NCBI GenBank assembly: GCA_013114715.1
Contig: QCWB01000002.1
Span: 1-51,467, forward strand
Source of the DNA: Nitrososphaera sp.
GTDB taxonomy: Archaea > Thermoproteota > Nitrososphaeria > Nitrososphaerales > Nitrososphaeraceae
Direction of reading: 5' to 3'
Length of the DNA stretch: 51,467 bases
Made by a program: the position numbers and the translations under genes. Under the pieces are notes generated by a model that saw only the letters and a list, made by a program, of their open reading frames with translations, did not search any database and was not told the DNA's origin. Position 1 is the first letter of the stretch, and every line of letters starts with the position of its first letter. Below, in pieces: positions 15,482 to 35,190 of the stretch.

Positions 15482-16630
15482 TCATTGACTTCCCGGACAG
15501 GCTTGCGCCCGTTTCTCTGGTAATCCATATGTTACAATATGGAATTCCTGCTTCAGCGACTCCTTTGGAATCTCCACAGGCGTGATTTCCCGGCGCTCCA
15601 CCGGTAGATGTAACATCTCAAGTCCATTCTGCAGATGGTTCATGGCAGAGTTGTAGTCTCTATCAAGTACAGCTCTACATTTTGGACAGGAATGAGTGCG
15701 CACTGCTAGTGACTTTGGAACAGGCTGACTACATCGATGGCAATCAATTGAGGAGTACGCAGGCTCTACCTCAACCATTCTGTTGGCTTTGTACTGGCAC
15801 ATTGTGTTGAACGTTGACCAGCTTGCATCCAGTATCTTGCGCGCAAGTTTGTGGTTCCTCGTCAGGTTTGCCACCCTCAAGCGCTCAAGGAATATCAGGT
15901 CATAACGACTGCAGTAGTACGTCGATGTCTTGTGCAGAAAGTCTCTACGCTTGTAGTTTATCTTCTCGTACAGCCTTGCAAGCATATGCTTTGCCTTCCT
16001 GTGATTGCTGCTGCCTTGCTGCCTTCTTGACACTCTGCGATGAGCTCTCCTTAACGGCTTGAGCATCTTTGTCAAAAATTGTGGGTTTTCAACGATGTGG
16101 TTATCCGAGTCGTGAGCAAACTTGGCAATACCAACATCTATCCCGACTGGCTTTGAGTATCTAATACTGGAATACTGTTTGCGGAGTATCTCGCATGCTA
16201 CAACTGCATACCAGCGTCCATTCTTCCTGCAAATAGTGACCTGCTTGACATTGATAGGCTGGCGATGCATAACAATATTCATGCTGCCAATCTTGGAAAG
16301 CGCTAGTTTGTTGTTCTCCATCCTAAAACCTGTCTGGTTATATGTGAAAGTATTGAAACGATCATGATACCTGTATGACAGCTTTCTTTTTGCCGTCTTT
16401 CTTGCCGTTGCAACTTGCTTTCCTACCATCTGGAGCATCTTGGAATGATAGTTCCTGAGCCAAGGATGCTGCTCCTTTAATTCGGTCAGCGCATAGTTCA
16501 TGTCATATTCCGACATTGGTGGGATTGATAGGAAATAGTTGTACACCCACCTGCAGCCGTCCAGCGTTTGCTCTAATGCCAATTCTTGTTGTCTAGTAGG
16601 ACGAAGGCGAAACTTGTAGTTGAGCAGAAC
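15482..16630 (-). CDS. tnpB: TnpB-family RNA-guided nuclease (IS200/IS605, solitary); start unclear
   Basis: This is a TnpB/OrfB-type protein, the RNA-guided nuclease encoded by IS200/IS605 elements. Counted from the TTG at 16582, the RuvC catalytic residues are present: D149 in GIDVG, E233 in FLERL and the Asp of LDRDYNSA (about 307-309). The zinc finger is also intact (CHRC, CPKC). The typical N-terminus YKFRLRPTRQQ lies upstream of that TTG in the same frame, which is open only to a TAA just above 16630 and has no ATG or GTG; CTG is the only near-cognate start. No tnpA is present. An omega-RNA would be expected to overlap the 3' end near 15440-15560. Confidence 0.85.
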   Translation of the reverse strand, partial: VLLNYKFRLRPTRQQELALEQTLDGCRWVYNYFLSIPPMSEYDMNYALTELKEQHPWLRNYHSKMLQMVGKQVATARKTAKRKLSYRYHDRFNTFTYNQTGFRMENNKLALSKIGSMNIVMHRQPINVKQVTICRKNGRWYAVVACEILRKQYSSIRYSKPVGIDVGIAKFAHDSDNHIVENPQFLTKMLKPLRRAHRRVSRRQQGSSNHRKAKHMLARLYEKINYKRRDFLHKTSTYYCSRYDLIFLERLRVANLTRNHKLARKILDASWSTFNTMCQYKANRMVEVEPAYSSIDCHRCSQPVPKSLAVRTHSCPKCRAVLDRDYNSAMNHLQNGLEMLHLPVERREITPVEIPKESLKQEFHIVTYGLPEKRAQACPGSQ

Positions 16631-28586: not shown

Positions 28587-29000
28587 ATGGTGATCCCGCT
28601 CCTCGCTTTGATATTTGTCGCAGTCCTGTTTGTACTGTCGTCTAGGGCGCAGCAGACAGGCGCCAGCTTTATCCTTGCAGTTGTTGCCGCGGGCCTTGTA
28701 ATATTCTGGGTTCGAGAATTGCATAGGATGTCTAGCTCAGAAGAGCAAAAGATGATGCCAGAATCAGAGAAAAGAGACTGGATATATGACCTGATAAAGA
28801 ACGAAAGTGAGATGGTCTTTGTTGCCGAGGTCCCGGGTCCTGAAGAACAGATAAACGTCCGGTTTACAAGCGGCATCCTGCGCATAAAAGGCGGCCAGAA
28901 CTTTGCCAAGGACGTCCAGATCGAGGCATCGACCGAGATGGGCATTTCTGATTACAAATACAGAAACGGCGTGCTCACGATAAAGCTGCAAAAGATCTAG
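28587..29000 (+). CDS. Membrane-anchored Hsp20/alpha-crystallin-like protein
   Basis: This 137-aa protein has two N-terminal hydrophobic segments (about 2-18 and 26-43). The cytosolic tail pattern, VFVAEVPGPEEQINVRF, then GILRIKGG and finally YKYRNGVLTIKLQK, follows the alpha-crystallin domain of small heat-shock proteins. A membrane-tethered sHsp-like domain could hold unfolded membrane proteins. The similarity is in pattern and should be tested by profile search. Confidence 0.6.
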   Translation: MVIPLLALIFVAVLFVLSSRAQQTGASFILAVVAAGLVIFWVRELHRMSSSEEQKMMPESEKRDWIYDLIKNESEMVFVAEVPGPEEQINVRFTSGILRIKGGQNFAKDVQIEASTEMGISDYKYRNGVLTIKLQKI

Positions 29001-29093
29001 AAACCTCTTTTTACTTAATCCTGACTGCCCTGTAACGAGTACCCTCATGTTTAAAGAGTCTAAATAAAGTTATGTTATAAGGTTTTCAGCTTT

Positions 29094-29165
29094 GGGTGCT
29101 GTCAAGTTGTCGGCTGTTTGAGCACCATGCTCGAGCAAGAGCAACGAAAGGCTTTACAGTATCCA
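29094..29165 (+). repeat. Left copy of the 72-bp inverted repeat
   Basis: The copy begins GGGTGCTGTC and ends ACAGTATCCA. It contains the 10-bp palindrome TGCTCGAGCA (29128-29137), and its first half can fold as an imperfect hairpin (GGTGC and TCAA pairing with TTGA and GCACC). It ends 11 bases beyond the stop of the oxidoreductase gene. Confidence 0.97.
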
Positions 29166-29176
29166 TTATTGGTTTC

Positions 29177-29992
29177 CTAATGACTAGTGCCATCCATTTT
29201 GAATGAAGGGATTACATCTTTTACAAAAGCTCGTAGGCGTTCAAAGTACTTCTCAGAATTGCCGGAAGGATAAACAGCTATAAACTTGCACCCAACATTT
29301 TGAAGGTCATCTATTTTCTTGATATATGAAGATGTAGAACGCATCCCGCTGAGATGATACCCATAGGTGAATTTCTTATCACTTAGCTTTCTTGATCTAC
29401 GGATCGAACGTATTTCCTGTACAGTTTTGTAGTATTCTGAAGTCTCTAGGTTAGAGGGAATCCATCCATCACCTAATGTTGCCGCGACATCAATCATTGA
29501 AGGTCGTTTAGTGCCAATCCAAATTGGAGGGTAAGGTGATTGAACGCACTTGAAAAATGCTTGATTTGATATTTTTGGATTTGTGAGAAGTGATCGGATT
29601 TCTTGTAGCCCCGTCCTGACCATATTTACCCGCAAAGAAGCATTTTTCCATGAGCCGAAAAGATCGAATTCTTTCTTGTACCAACCTGCGCCGATACCAA
29701 GAATAGCTCTACCATTAGAGATTATGTCAAGGGAAGATATTGACTTAGCAACACTGAGCGAACCTCTTAATGGTAACGGTGTAACGCATGTACCAAGTCT
29801 AACTTTCTCCGTTAGTCCTGCAATGAAAGATAATAATTCGAAGACATCAAGTGTTTGATTATTGTGTGGGTATAGGACATGATCCCATGATAAGATAGTA
29901 TCAAAATATGAATCGGCTAATTCTGCAACAGAACGTATCAGTGAGAGGGTGCAGTAATTACCATAGTTAGGAAAAATAACCCCAAATTGCAA
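29177..29992 (-). CDS. Luciferase-like (LLM) F420/flavin-dependent oxidoreductase
   Basis: This 271-aa TIM-barrel protein of the luciferase-like monooxygenase class has the N-terminal MQFGVIFPNYG, WDHVLYP (about 36-43), the VRLGTCVTPLPLR strand, AILGIGAGWYKKEFDLFG and the C-terminal PPIWIGTKRP. The cofactor is probably F420 or FMN; F420 is known in thaumarchaea. The TTG start is only 5 bases after the helicase stop, so it shares the transcript. It is an unexpected partner for a Hachiman-type pair; no defence role is established. Confidence 0.85.
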   Translation of the reverse strand: MQFGVIFPNYGNYCTLSLIRSVAELADSYFDTILSWDHVLYPHNNQTLDVFELLSFIAGLTEKVRLGTCVTPLPLRGSLSVAKSISSLDIISNGRAILGIGAGWYKKEFDLFGSWKNASLRVNMVRTGLQEIRSLLTNPKISNQAFFKCVQSPYPPIWIGTKRPSMIDVAATLGDGWIPSNLETSEYYKTVQEIRSIRRSRKLSDKKFTYGYHLSGMRSTSSYIKKIDDLQNVGCKFIAVYPSGNSEKYFERLRAFVKDVIPSFKMDGTSH

Positions 29993-29997
29993 CTCAG

Positions 29998-32922
29998 TTA
30001 CCTCTTTACGGAATTCTGGCTTGTTCTTAGTAATTCTTTGATTTCATCATACAGCAGATCAGTACTAGTTTTATTGTTAGGAAAGAGTGTTTCAAGGTCA
30101 GTTTTTTGAAGTTCAGATAAGGTTTTTCGTTTGGCCTTCAAGAACTTGCCTAGCTTTATTGCAGTGTTTCTCCCCATATGAGGGAGACCCATCTCCATTA
30201 GCCCCACAGTCATAGGGTCCGAACATCCCAACTTGCAAAACTTTGCTAATTCGCGTATTCGTTTGCGCTGGGAAGCTTTCATACGGACTATACTTTCAGA
30301 TATCGGTGTAACCGTTGATAAAACCCAATAAGCGTCCTCTCGTAACGACTCTTCGATAAATGCAGCATCAGTCTTACGAAGACCAGTTAGTTCGATAATC
30401 TTTTCTGTTTCGTAAGAATTGATCCAGTACCACAATACCGTTGCAAAATTAGCAGCAAGTTCAGTATCATCGTATTTTTCCATTATCGATGAATCTTGTT
30501 TAATGGTCTGTTTGACAATTCCGGCATCTTTCAAGATCTTAACATCCTTCATTATTTCATAATATGTCCGCATTTCCTTTGGAATACCTGCCAAAGATAG
30601 TACTAGGATATCGAACTGATCGCCTTGAAAATTACCATCAGCAATTTTCTTACAGTTATCGACCAAATTCTTAATACTGAATGGATATAACATCGAGTGT
30701 GTCGCAAGTCTGCCTGTAGGCTTCAGAGATAACTTACCTGCTTTCTCATCCAGAAAGTCAAATTTATGTAGCTTCATAATCTCCCAGCTTAGTCTGTCTG
30801 ACAGTTTTTGTTTATATTCATCTTCAGCGGATTTCCAGAACCAGAGTTTTTTCATGTATTCTATTATGTCTGCCTTGCTTCTATCTGTCATATCCAAGAG
30901 ACCAAGAATTTCTGATTGAACCGCGTATCTAGTTTGTGGTACACTCTTTACAAACTTAGTCATAGCAGACTTGAGCTGCTCTTCTCCACTTTCGAAATAG
31001 AATGAAGATAGCTGCTCAGCCTCATAGTTGGTCAAGGCGATTAGTACGCTTGTGCCTTTCGAATCGAAATCTGGTCTACCAGCTCTTCCAGCCAGATTTC
31101 TGTAGCTTGCCACAGGTAATCTACCCTTAAACATGCCTCGACGCTCCTGCGGGAAGGGGAATATTACCATGCTGAAGGGGAGATTAACACCTGCTTCTAG
31201 AGTAGTCGTAGCAACAAGAGCTCTAATTGCCTTGTTTCTTACACCGTTTTCAATTATATTTCGATATCTTAGCGGCAATCCTGCGTGATGATAAGAAACG
31301 CCAAATTTGACTAATTCTATGAGATTGCGAGCGTATAGGGGCAGTTCTGGTTCAGTATTGGCAATTTCATCGATTAGCTTCTTTCTTAGTGTTTCATCTT
31401 TGTTTCGGATCTCTCCAATATCCGGGAGAAAAGTCTCAGAAGACCTGAGAATATCACATATTTCTTGTGCAATAGACTCCACCTTTGTTCTTGATAAGGA
31501 GATTATTAGACACTGACCATCCTTCATCATTTCTTCCTGTACAAACCGAGCAGTGATGACAATTCTTTTCATTTGATCGCTGCCGGGAGCGGATATCATA
31601 TGTGTAGGAGTCTTTACTCCATTCTTTTTCCATAGAACTCCGTTGCAATAGATAGTTTCTTCAAGGTCTACAGGTCTCCAATTTTTCTTGACATACTTTG
31701 CGTCTAGCCAGTCGGAGAAACCTACTACATCGGAATCATTAACCATGCCAGACAATGCAACTAATTGAGGACCCTTACCGTTGAGTTCCTTAAATCTCGT
31801 GAGTATAAACTCAAGTGGAATTCCTCTTTCATCTTCAGACATTTTATGAACTTCATCGACAATAAGTGAACCAATAACCGCACTGTCAATTAGATTCTTT
31901 TTTACAATGCTACCAAATTTTTCGTAAGTAGCAACAATAATGTCGGCATCATTTAGTATCGCATCTGACTCAGGATGTTCTCTAGTAGAGACTGCAACAG
32001 TTTTCCCGGTCTTGGAAAGCAAATCCTTCATCTTATCGCCTACTTCTTCAACTAGACTCCTTGTAGGACCTACATATGCGACCTTTCTTTCGCGTGACGC
32101 AGTAGAGGCCACTAAAGATGATAGAAATGTCTTCCCAGTGGCGGTGTTAGTACATATTAATAACTTCTTACCATCTAGAAGTCCCTCGTTTATTACTTCT
32201 AACTGTGTTGGCCATAATTCTATTCTTTTAAGTTCTACAAGTCGTTCAACTACCTGATTCGATAAAGGTAGTCGTAATATGCTTCTGTTCATTGCAGAAC
32301 TAATCACCATGCAAGAGAGCCTTGCCAGCATGGAAATCCACGGATCTGCGTCGGACTCTTTAGCAATTTGCTGTAAATCTTCAATTGCTTGGGAAAGCTC
32401 TCCAAATTTAGAGGGATCTTTTTCAATTACAGCCTCCTTGTACCTAAGGAGCAGATCAACTATTCCTAGCAAAACTATTCGGTTATCTTCGTTGTCAGAG
32501 CTCAAGCCGAATTGATTAGCAGATTGAAGTCGCTGTAAGACTCTAAAGAAATCACTAGCTTCATGTTGAAGGCTTGAGAGATCTCGCAACCCGAAATCTG
32601 ATATTACTTTTGTATACGTTCTTGCCAGATACTCCGAATTATTGAAGATAGATTCCATTGGAAGAATGGTGCCTTGCATCATGGTGTACGCTTTCCTACT
32701 TCGTGGGCCTTCTCCTGCTATATCGAAGGACATTCCTGTCATTGCAAGATAAATAGACTCGTATTTCTTTGCCACAAGTTGCTGAGCGCATAGGTCTTCA
32801 AGAATTTTTGCAGATTCTATCAGTACGACAGGATCCTTTTTCGTACGGAATGCACTGGCTATACCAGCTAGACTCCGAGCCAATAATGCAGTATCAAGAC
32901 CGAGGTCCGGCAAATTTCTCAC
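29998..32922 (-). CDS. hamB: HamB-like SF2 helicase of a Hachiman-type defence system
   Basis: This 974-aa superfamily 2 (Ski2/Hel308-like) helicase has Walker A TNTATGKT (258-265), DEVH box (356-359), SGM motif III (391-393), ATTTLEAGVNLP (571-582) and motif VI NLAGRAGRPDF (609-619). Helical N- and C-terminal extensions follow the pattern of HamB, which scans DNA and releases HamA nuclease on phage attack. The assignment rests on the neighbouring DUF1837-like gene and the length. The GTG start at 32922 lies 29 bases inside the hamA 3' end, a coupled overlap. Confidence 0.8.
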   Translation of the reverse strand: MRNLPDLGLDTALLARSLAGIASAFRTKKDPVVLIESAKILEDLCAQQLVAKKYESIYLAMTGMSFDIAGEGPRSRKAYTMMQGTILPMESIFNNSEYLARTYTKVISDFGLRDLSSLQHEASDFFRVLQRLQSANQFGLSSDNEDNRIVLLGIVDLLLRYKEAVIEKDPSKFGELSQAIEDLQQIAKESDADPWISMLARLSCMVISSAMNRSILRLPLSNQVVERLVELKRIELWPTQLEVINEGLLDGKKLLICTNTATGKTFLSSLVASTASRERKVAYVGPTRSLVEEVGDKMKDLLSKTGKTVAVSTREHPESDAILNDADIIVATYEKFGSIVKKNLIDSAVIGSLIVDEVHKMSEDERGIPLEFILTRFKELNGKGPQLVALSGMVNDSDVVGFSDWLDAKYVKKNWRPVDLEETIYCNGVLWKKNGVKTPTHMISAPGSDQMKRIVITARFVQEEMMKDGQCLIISLSRTKVESIAQEICDILRSSETFLPDIGEIRNKDETLRKKLIDEIANTEPELPLYARNLIELVKFGVSYHHAGLPLRYRNIIENGVRNKAIRALVATTTLEAGVNLPFSMVIFPFPQERRGMFKGRLPVASYRNLAGRAGRPDFDSKGTSVLIALTNYEAEQLSSFYFESGEEQLKSAMTKFVKSVPQTRYAVQSEILGLLDMTDRSKADIIEYMKKLWFWKSAEDEYKQKLSDRLSWEIMKLHKFDFLDEKAGKLSLKPTGRLATHSMLYPFSIKNLVDNCKKIADGNFQGDQFDILVLSLAGIPKEMRTYYEIMKDVKILKDAGIVKQTIKQDSSIMEKYDDTELAANFATVLWYWINSYETEKIIELTGLRKTDAAFIEESLREDAYWVLSTVTPISESIVRMKASQRKRIRELAKFCKLGCSDPMTVGLMEMGLPHMGRNTAIKLGKFLKAKRKTLSELQKTDLETLFPNNKTSTDLLYDEIKELLRTSQNSVKR

Positions 32923-33727
32923 ACATTAATTGTGTTGTGTTTTCAAGTGTTTCAACTCCGGCTATGCTAACTGTTATATCGTTACCATATTCTGGAAGCT
33001 CATCCATGCTTCTATCAAAGGCATCAGTTGTGCAGTAACTTGCATCGAGGAAGACCGACAAGTCTAACAGATAATCTAGGTTTTCCAGACTATCCTTCAG
33101 GAGTAGAAATTTAGGTTCCAGATCCGTTGTGTTACCTTTGACAGCTTCCTGGAAATTAATTGCTTCAGCGAAATCAGCTACGATTCGTGCGAGGGAGAGT
33201 AGTACGTGATTAACATCTGACTGTTCAAGTGCCTCTACACACTTGTCTTTTATTACTATATGCGCCGATGCAGATTTTATTGCATTATGGATATGTTTAC
33301 TTTCGCCGATCATCAATTTAGGCTTACTCGTATGGGTATCCGAGGCGATTATATCCAATCCATTAGAATGGCTTGTTCCAGAATTTCTCCATTTGACATA
33401 AACGAGTGAGTGTCCTCTAGAAAGAATCAATCCCTCAAGTAGCATTTCACCCACAAGACCCTTTACGTCTGCCTCATCGAGAAAGACGTCAGGTAGCTTC
33501 TCGGAAATTCTTATTCCGCGCATCGCGATTTTTCGCAGTACTCTCGTGCGATAAGTATTAGCCTTTATTTCACGTTTCTTTGATACAGCTTCGGATAACA
33601 ATCCTTCTAATCGAGCGATTTTGTCATTATCAAGTACACCACATATCTTAATTGCAGTGTTACGACTACCTTTGATCTTTCTTGTCTTATTGTGTGTATA
33701 GACTAGATCTAATGCGAGGCCGGCCAC
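32894..33727 (-). CDS. hamA: HamA-like nuclease (DUF1837) of a Hachiman-type defence system
   Basis: The 277-aa product carries a PD-(D/E)XK-type core with the DUF1837 pattern: Gly-Glu at 93-94 (VGEMLLEGL), HSNGLDII with Asp125 and IGESKH with Glu142 and Lys144. HamA is the non-specific DNA nuclease of Hachiman, held inactive by HamB. The order hamA-hamB with overlapping ends is the standard one. The start is GTG at 33725-33727, with a TATA-like TTATTATT about 26 bases upstream. The right inverted repeat ends 56 bases upstream. Confidence 0.8.
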   Translation of the reverse strand: MAGLALDLVYTHNKTRKIKGSRNTAIKICGVLDNDKIARLEGLLSEAVSKKREIKANTYRTRVLRKIAMRGIRISEKLPDVFLDEADVKGLVGEMLLEGLILSRGHSLVYVKWRNSGTSHSNGLDIIASDTHTSKPKLMIGESKHIHNAIKSASAHIVIKDKCVEALEQSDVNHVLLSLARIVADFAEAINFQEAVKGNTTDLEPKFLLLKDSLENLDYLLDLSVFLDASYCTTDAFDRSMDELPEYGNDITVSIAGVETLENTTQLMCEKFAGPRS

Positions 33728-33782
33728 TTTCAGAGGTTTAAATGAGCAGAATAATAAGCATTCTCGCGGACAGGTACGAAGC

Positions 33783-33854
33783 TGGATACTGTAAAGCCTT
33801 TCGTTGCTCTTGCTCGAGCATGGTGCTCAAACAGCCGACAACTTGACAGCACCC
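33783..33854 (-). repeat. Right copy of the 72-bp inverted repeat
   Basis: This is the exact reverse complement of 29094-29165. It begins TGGATACTGT and ends CAGCACCC on the plus strand. It lies between the divergent hamA and methyltransferase genes, upstream of both. Confidence 0.97.
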
Positions 33855-33918: not shown

Positions 33919-35190
33919 GTGCTGTCTCAGGAAGTAGATGATTCCTGGTCGTTTAAAGACGCCACAAGAACCGAAACTTCCTATCTTACCCACGGTTATC
34001 ATCGATATCCGGCTAAGTTCATCCCGCAGCTAGCTGCAAGGGTCATAAGAGAAAATACGCAGGCAGGAGATCTGGTTTGCGACCCGTTCATGGGTTCAGG
34101 AACGACGTTGGTAGAGACCATAGTTAACGGCCGCAGGGCATACGGTACAGATATCAATCCTGTTGCAGTCCTGATCGCTAGGGCTAAAACTACTCCAATA
34201 GAGCCGGGTAAGTTGAAACGGGAAGTTGAGGCAGTCCTTCAATATCTAAAGGCGGCCATCGTAAGACAAGAGGGACAGGCACTTCTGACTTCCGAAACTT
34301 TCGATGTTCACCTTCCATCTCATTCCAGAATAGACTATTGGTTTCCAGAGAAGCAAAAGCATGACCTTGCCCTCATGCTTGGGAGAATCATGGCCGTAAG
34401 CGACAAGGACGTACAGACTTTCTTGCTTTGTTCTTTCTCCAATATTCTAAAGGGCTGCTCGAGATGGATTATGAAGTCAGTCAAGCCTACCATTGACAAG
34501 CACAAGATTCCTGCTCCCGCATACCAGAGCTTTCTCTTACAGACTAGGAGAATGGTCAAAAAGAATGAAGAGTTTTGGAGAACAATTGGCAGTCACAAGA
34601 TTGACTGTATTATAGACAATAGGGATGCTCGTAATTTAGCGTTGGAGAACAATTCTGCACAGCTAGTTGTGACAAGTCCTCCCTATGTAACATCTTACGA
34701 ATATGCAGACCTGCATCAATTAACAGGATTATGGCTGGGATATGTTGATAGCCTGAAGGAATTTAGAGCGAAATTCATAGGCTCCATACAAAAGGAAGAC
34801 GGAGACCTTGATCTCTGTAGCCCTCTTGCTAAAGAAACAGTCGTGGAATTGAGAACCAAAGATAAAAGAGAAGCCACCGGTACGGAACGATATTTCTTTG
34901 AAATGCAGCAATGCTTTGAGGAGATGCACCGTGTTCTCAAGAAAGGCGGTAGAGCGGCCATAGTCATTGGAGATACGGATCTTAAGAAAGTGAAGATAAG
35001 AAACGGTGAAGTATTCATTGAAACTATGGAAAAAATAGGGTTCAAGAAACACCAGATAATCAAACGACCAATTCCAAGCAAGATTCTGCCGCTTACACGT
35101 GATGAAAAGACGGGCAAATTTGCTAGAACCGCAAACGCTGACAGAATGGCATATCCCACAGAATACATCATAATAATGGAGAAAATCTAG
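33919..35190 (+). CDS. Type II DNA methyltransferase (N4-cytosine type likely)
   Basis: This 423-aa amino-methyltransferase has the AdoMet motif DPFMGSGT (55-62), the acidic loop YGTDINP and the catalytic TSPPY (252-256). TSPPY is typical of N4-cytosine and some N6-adenine enzymes. About 190 residues between motifs I and IV may hold the target recognition region. The GTG start follows a weak TATA-like GTTATAGCT. Its stop overlaps the next gene's GTG (TAGTG), marking a restriction-modification pair. Confidence 0.9.
   Translation: MLSQEVDDSWSFKDATRTETSYLTHGYHRYPAKFIPQLAARVIRENTQAGDLVCDPFMGSGTTLVETIVNGRRAYGTDINPVAVLIARAKTTPIEPGKLKREVEAVLQYLKAAIVRQEGQALLTSETFDVHLPSHSRIDYWFPEKQKHDLALMLGRIMAVSDKDVQTFLLCSFSNILKGCSRWIMKSVKPTIDKHKIPAPAYQSFLLQTRRMVKKNEEFWRTIGSHKIDCIIDNRDARNLALENNSAQLVVTSPPYVTSYEYADLHQLTGLWLGYVDSLKEFRAKFIGSIQKEDGDLDLCSPLAKETVVELRTKDKREATGTERYFFEMQQCFEEMHRVLKKGGRAAIVIGDTDLKKVKIRNGEVFIETMEKIGFKKHQIIKRPIPSKILPLTRDEKTGKFARTANADRMAYPTEYIIIMEKI

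What the first reader, a model, noticed from the sequence alone, without database searches (positions are those of the whole stretch)
29094..33854. Hachiman-type HamA/HamB pair plus a third gene inside a perfect 72-bp inverted repeat
Seen directly: two 72-base sequences 4.6 kb apart are exact inverted copies and enclose three genes on one strand. One gene has the DUF1837 (HamA) nuclease pattern, with Glu94, Asp125, Glu142 and Lys144. The other is a 974-aa SF2 helicase with a coupled overlap. Known: HamA plus HamB make the Hachiman anti-phage system. Inference: exact repeats of this length imply recent duplication or active maintenance, so the cassette may invert or move as a unit. An archaeal defence cassette packaged this way would be new to me.
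Basis: partly seen in the sequence, partly recalled or inferred. Interest (0 to 1): 0.8.

Follow-up and report, generated by a model that had tools for sequence, protein, structure and literature searches.

The report
Archaeal Hachiman-like operon, repeat-bounded and inverted
A three-gene anti-virus operon in a soil-type archaeon has apparently been flipped end for end between two identical 72-base hairpin repeats; the repeats belong to a small scattered repeat family rather than being dedicated packaging for the defence genes, and nothing found shows that the flipping is a controlled switch.

Summary
Two exact 72-bp inverted copies (29094-29165, 33783-33854) enclose three same-strand genes. 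HamB is supported. The 277-aa protein is a divergent HamA-like nuclease: its motif is intact, but it scores below every curated cut-off. The third gene is a luciferase-like monooxygenase.

New evidence: G029, another species of the genus, carries the same operon without the repeats, with HamA divergent from a 381-aa gene. In the window the promoter and first 19 codons of that gene lie outside the left arm, at the wrong end of the operon. Flipping the segment between the arms restores the G029 order. So the operon has inverted relative to its relative, with both ends at the repeats.

Each arm is itself an imperfect palindrome that folds end to end on one strand. Two solo relatives sit at unrelated loci in G026, so the arm is a dispersed hairpin repeat, not a defence-specific boundary.

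HamA's putative TATA box lies inside the segment, so flipping should not silence it. No recombinase was recognised nearby, and outer target-site duplications are absent. Most likely: a one-off inversion by recombination between two repeat copies. A reversible switch, or an assembly choice of orientation, is not excluded; reads were unavailable.

The parts
28992..29048 (-). 19-codon remnant (MRVLVTGQSGLSKKRFLDL) of a 381-aa P-loop gene that lies divergent from HamA in G029
   Evidence: 84% identical over residues 1-19 of L024:9395-10540, the only match in the genome
29074..29089 (-). promoter-region 16-mer (CTGAAAACCTTATAAC on the minus strand) of the remnant gene, exact in G029; lies outside the left arm
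   Evidence: only exact occurrence in the window
29094..29165 (+). left arm: 72-nt hairpin repeat
29177..29992 (-). luciferase-like (LLM, F420/flavin type) monooxygenase, 271 aa; third gene of the operon
   Evidence: PF00296 E 2e-32; 60% identical orthologue at the same place in G029
29998..32922 (-). HamB-type SF2 (Hel308/Ski2-like) helicase, 974 aa
   Evidence: PADLOC HamB E 7.6e-40; N-terminal 220 aa alone hits a HamB model E 1.2e-4; 67% identical in G029
32894..33727 (-). divergent HamA-like nuclease, 277 aa, motif GE94..GLD125..GE142SK144
33750..33757 (-). putative HamA TATA box TTATTATT, at the same distance from the start codon as in G029; inside the inverted segment
   Evidence: sequence comparison
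33783..33854 (-). right arm: exact inverted copy of the 72-nt hairpin repeat
33919..35190 (+). neighbour outside the repeat: N4/N6 DNA methyltransferase of a type II restriction-modification pair
   Evidence: PADLOC MTase_II E 1.5e-65, PF01555
35190..35885 (+). neighbour outside the repeat: BsaWI-type restriction endonuclease
   Evidence: PF18643 E 6.7e-31

Best explanation
An archaeal Hachiman-like defence operon (HamA-like nuclease, HamB helicase, LLM monooxygenase) lies beside a type II restriction-modification pair. By homology to Hachiman, HamB would patrol DNA and release or activate the HamA nuclease when it meets damaged or single-stranded DNA; this step is inferred, not shown. Two copies of a low-copy, scattered 72-nt hairpin repeat came to lie on either side of the operon in opposite orientation. 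Recombination between them, most simply homologous recombination, inverted the whole operon relative to its ancestor. That an inversion happened is inferred from gene order; the recombination mechanism is inferred; that it is a single unregulated event is my preferred reading. The operon keeps its own putative promoter inside the inverted segment, so expression probably survived.
For: Exact inverted repeat. G029 has the same three genes in the same order (52/67/60% identical), HamA divergent from the 381-aa gene, and no such inverted repeat. The start and promoter of that gene lie outside the left arm, 4 nt from it; flipping 29094-33854 puts the two start codons 172 nt apart in the G029 order. 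In G459, from another class, the 381-aa gene also lies upstream of HamA in divergent orientation. Solo relatives of the arm in G026 (48/72 identical in the first, 13/13 outer pairs kept; E 0.0072, and 1e-8 for the second copy) show a dispersed family. Putative HamA TATA box at the same spacing in both genomes, inside the segment.
Against: Only one close relative has the operon, so ancestral order rests on G029 plus the distant G459. No genome with the arms in the ancestral orientation was found. The genome is an 87% complete draft in 229 contigs and no reads were available. HamA is below curated thresholds and the profile-profile comparison failed.
Confidence: 0.6

Rival explanations
1. Invertible switch: a recombinase acting at the arms flips the operon back and forth to tune defence.
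For: Exact identity of the arms; evidence that the segment has inverted; two tyrosine recombinases elsewhere in the genome.
Against: No recombinase recognised among the cassette and neighbouring genes that were annotated; putative HamA promoter lies inside the segment so flipping would not disconnect it; arm relatives occur solo without any cargo pair in G026.
Confidence: 0.12
2. The inversion and the inverted duplication arose in one event (template switching, staggered-break repair, or intramolecular replicative transposition of the hairpin element), so there never were two pre-existing repeats.
For: Arms 100% identical; exactly two copies in the genome. Only the copy upstream of HamA shows a possible 4-bp duplication (GCTT either side) once the segment is flipped back, and that intergenic stretch is about 74 bp longer than in G029.
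Against: No inverted target duplication of the kind replicative transposition leaves was seen at the second copy; cannot be separated from recombination between recent copies with these data.
Confidence: 0.2
3. The repeats are terminal inverted repeats of a transposon-like unit that carries the operon as cargo.
For: Perfect inverted repeats at both ends of a defence operon; GC of the stretch (39-42%) is below most of the left half of the window.
Against: Each arm is a complete palindromic element with its own end-to-end pairing and has solo relatives; no direct duplication outside the two arms; no transposase among the genes inside; the boundary coincides with an inversion relative to G029 rather than an insertion, since part of the ancestral locus (the remnant gene) lies outside.
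Confidence: 0.07
4. The orientation of the segment in this draft assembly is an artefact: an exact 72-bp inverted repeat leaves orientation ambiguous for short-read assembly.
For: Draft assembly in 229 contigs; the flipped order would be the ancestral one.
Against: The contig runs unbroken through both arms, which usually needs words or reads longer than 72 bases, and those fix orientation.
Confidence: 0.12

Closest known systems
Hachiman (HamA DUF1837 nuclease + HamB helicase; PMC12278908)
   Same: Nuclease gene directly upstream of, and overlapping, a Ski2/Hel308-like helicase gene; D-E(X)K motif with the same 17-residue D-to-E spacing as plasmid HamAs; HamB models match, including the N-terminal region alone.
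   Different: HamA scores below curated cut-offs and does not align to bona fide HamA by profile-profile; a third LLM monooxygenase gene; closest solved structures to the helicase are archaeal Hel308 (E 2e-73) rather than HamB (E 8e-37).
Dispersed palindromic repeats / miniature inverted-repeat elements (REP- or MITE-like)
   Same: 72 nt, ends pair with each other (TGGGTGCTGTCAAG / TGGATACTGTAAAG), scattered at unrelated loci in two species.
   Different: Very low copy number; no parent transposase found; no consistent target-site duplication; strand-asymmetric fold with G-U pairs, which also fits an RNA hairpin.
Invertible defence loci (for example phase-variable restriction systems; from general knowledge)
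   Same: Inverted repeats bound a segment that has inverted.
   Different: No recombinase found, whole operon with its putative promoter inside, no evidence of mixed orientations.

Membership tests
Hachiman | HamB-type SF2 helicase | tested here: met
   PADLOC HamB E 7.6e-40; N-terminal 220 aa alone E 1.2e-4 to HamB PDLC00192. Caveat: the helicase core is closer to Hel308.
Hachiman | HamA / DUF1837 domain at curated score | tested here: not met
   No PF08878 hit for the window protein; one of four homologues E 0.0012; PADLOC E 0.014.
Hachiman | HamA detectable by weaker homology tests | tested here: inconclusive
   A profile of six bona fide HamAs ranks the window protein first of 1025 ORFs, at E 0.48, and the G029 protein third; hhalign gives no match; AlphaFold model unusable, pLDDT 34.
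Hachiman | D-E(X)K nuclease motif | tested here: met
   E94, D125, E142, K144 invariant in four homologues; same motif and D-E spacing in plasmid HamAs.
Hachiman | hamA immediately upstream of hamB, short overlap | tested here: met
   29-nt overlap here and in G029; same order in G459 and at both G191 loci; as in plasmid HamAB.
Hachiman | Anti-phage activity and DNA-damage-triggered nuclease | not testable with these tools
   Needs expression or a host.
Mobile cassette bounded by terminal inverted repeats | Target-site duplication outside the repeats | tested here: not met
   Outer flanks TCAGCTTT and TCATGCCT share no duplication.
Mobile cassette bounded by terminal inverted repeats | Transposase or recombinase in the unit | tested here: not met
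   Only HamA, HamB and LLM genes inside.
Invertible segment | Segment found in both orientations | tested here: inconclusive
   Opposite orientation relative to the divergent gene in G029, but not both states in one population; no reads available.

The most novel reading that the evidence does not exclude
A reversible, hairpin-repeat-bounded archaeal defence operon whose orientation alternates within a population, so that the Hachiman-like operon is alternately read away from the restriction-modification operon or in the same direction as it.
Probability: 0.1. Interest if true: 0.75.

Novelty: new variant of a known kind. Interest (0 to 1): 0.42.

Why it matters
It gives a traced example of a defence operon inverted between two copies of a small dispersed repeat in an ammonia-oxidiser-type archaeon, and it places a divergent archaeal branch of Hachiman-like pairs (Nitrososphaera and a distant lineage of the same phylum) next to nucleotide-metabolism genes. 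Both are testable. It also corrects the idea that the repeat is a dedicated cassette boundary.

Tried and rejected
AlphaFold on HamA with two sequences failed (pLDDT 34), so no fold search was run. The genome-contig scan with HamA found only G029's own record, and the viral-contig scan found no relative. The 72-mer has no match in viral contigs, plasmids or phages, and no Rfam family matches the region. tRNA: ARAGORN finds none. Integron attC was considered: the arm lacks the canonical GTTRRRY/RYYYAAC boxes (read by eye, boxes from memory). Replicative transposition was considered: the predicted inverted target duplication is absent. A parental insertion sequence with matching ends was sought in 1.17 Mb of G026: none found, only scattered weak matches to one end. 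The weak 26-bp match in contig C220 was not pursued.

Full report
OBSERVATION. The 72-nt inverted pair is real and exact: arms 29094-29165 and 33783-33854, 4617 nt apart. Ten first-order shuffles of the window gave longest exact inverted repeats of 14-20 nt. By BLAST the 72-mer is present only twice in its own genome (1.8 Mb in 229 contigs, 87% complete) and absent from 69 other genomes of the family. Three minus-strand ORFs fill the segment.

GENES. The 974-aa protein matches PADLOC HamB models (best E 7.6e-40). Its helicase core is closer to Hel308 than to the solved HamB, but its N-terminal 220 residues alone match a HamB model at E 1.2e-4, which a plain Hel308 would not be expected to do (my inference). 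The 277-aa protein is a weak HamA: PADLOC HamA1 E 0.014, no PF08878 hit itself, E 0.0012 for one of four homologues. A profile built from six bona fide HamAs (five plasmid proteins and one from another archaeon) ranks it first of 1025 ORFs, though only at E 0.48, and hhalign finds no match. The motif GE94..GLD125..GE142SK144 is invariant in four homologues and has the same 17-residue D-to-E spacing as bona fide HamAs. PMC12278908 reports a D-E(X)K motif as the HamA active site and HamB as a Ski2-like, functionally Hel308-like helicase. The third gene is an LLM monooxygenase (PF00296 E 2e-32).

RELATIVES. G029 (same genus; its contig is public as Nitrososphaera sp. isolate L.E.AR.1) carries HamA-HamB-LLM in the same order, with the same 29-nt overlap, at 52/67/60% identity, but no comparable inverted repeat and no copy of the arm. 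HamAB pairs of this branch were also found in G459 (another class) and twice in G191. They are rare: own genome included, 4 of 400 class genomes matched, two of them weakly, and 3 of 398 phylum genomes.

INVERSION. In G029, HamA is divergent from a 381-aa gene (L024:9395-10540). In the window, the first 19 codons of that gene (28992-29048, minus strand, 84% identical, the only match in the genome) and its promoter region (CTGAAAACCTTATAAC, exact over 16 nt) lie just outside the LEFT arm (4 nt between the 16-mer and the arm), beyond the 3' end of the LLM gene. Flipping 29094-33854 in silico puts HamA next to it in the G029 arrangement. G459 also has the 381-aa gene upstream of HamA in divergent orientation. 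The simplest reading is that the segment between the arms has inverted in the window's lineage. The putative HamA TATA box (TTATTATT, 22 nt before the start codon in both genomes) lies inside the segment; the promoter of the remnant gene lies outside. Inversion therefore should not separate the operon from its promoter.

WHAT THE ARMS ARE. Read inward from the outer end, each arm folds end to end (-33 kcal/mol, z -4.45); the other strand does not. A covariance model of the arm found one full-length relative in G026 among 43 genomes (E 0.0072): 48 of 72 positions identical, including TGTCAAGTTGTCGG, with all 13 outer pairs kept (one double change, three single changes), and the same strand folding. 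With only two sequences the shuffle control is not informative (243/500); the slid controls do worse (34-54% paired). A second model found another copy in 1.17 Mb of G026 (E 1e-8). One G026 copy directly follows a coding frame that I read as universal-stress-protein-like; neither copy has a paired partner within the stretches read. So the arm is a member of a low-copy dispersed hairpin repeat family. Whether it is a MITE-like element or an RNA hairpin is open. When flipped back, the copy upstream of HamA has GCTT on both sides and the intergenic stretch is about 74 bp longer than in G029 (131 against 57 nt between the 16-mer and HamA), which fits insertion of a 72-73-bp element; the GCTT match was noticed after the fact and could be chance.

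MECHANISM. Shown: exact repeats, conserved operon, displaced neighbouring gene. Inferred: inversion by recombination between the two copies; function as DNA-damage-sensing nuclease-helicase by homology to Hachiman. Not shown: any recombinase acting here, any population mixture, any anti-viral activity. Two tyrosine-recombinase genes exist on other contigs; serine recombinases were not searched for.

CONTEXT. Beyond the right arm lie a type II methyltransferase and a BsaWI-type endonuclease. Synteny with four genus genomes stops at the end of the 28587-29000 gene (within about 17 nt), exactly where the remnant gene is cut, so the locus has also lost most of an ancestral neighbour.

VERDICT. A real, repeat-bounded inversion of a divergent Hachiman-like operon; the repeats are ordinary dispersed hairpins. 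The claim of a dedicated or active invertible cassette is not supported by what could be tested.

Noticed in passing
L024:8445-12242 and L034:4184-13206: In G029 and in G459 (another class) the HamAB pair sits with a conserved set: the 381-aa P-loop gene, a radical-SAM gene with pVip (viperin) matches, and a thymidylate-kinase-like gene. Possible nucleotide-modification partner of a Hachiman-like pair; lost in the window apart from the 19-codon remnant.
   Followed up: partly
L034:5765-6628, L034:8257-9225, L024:13276-13665: Near those HamAB loci are AP-endonuclease-type TIM-barrel, OGG-like and uracil-DNA-glycosylase-like genes (weak to moderate Pfam hits).
   Followed up: no
L152:4872-8595 and L035:9259-13363: G191 has two separate HamAB pairs of this branch; the first has a transposase-like ORF directly upstream (L035:8068-9258, judged by sequence only).
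   Followed up: partly
window 15482-16582: IS605-type TnpB gene (PF01385 E 4e-21, PF07282); no TnpA identified beside it.
   Followed up: no
window 28587-29000: A conserved 137-aa gene marks the end of synteny with four genus genomes; weak FTR1 match.
   Followed up: partly
L120:2983-3002 (G026): A 20-nt, 90% match to the outer end of the arm alone, possibly a single end of a related mobile element.
   Followed up: no
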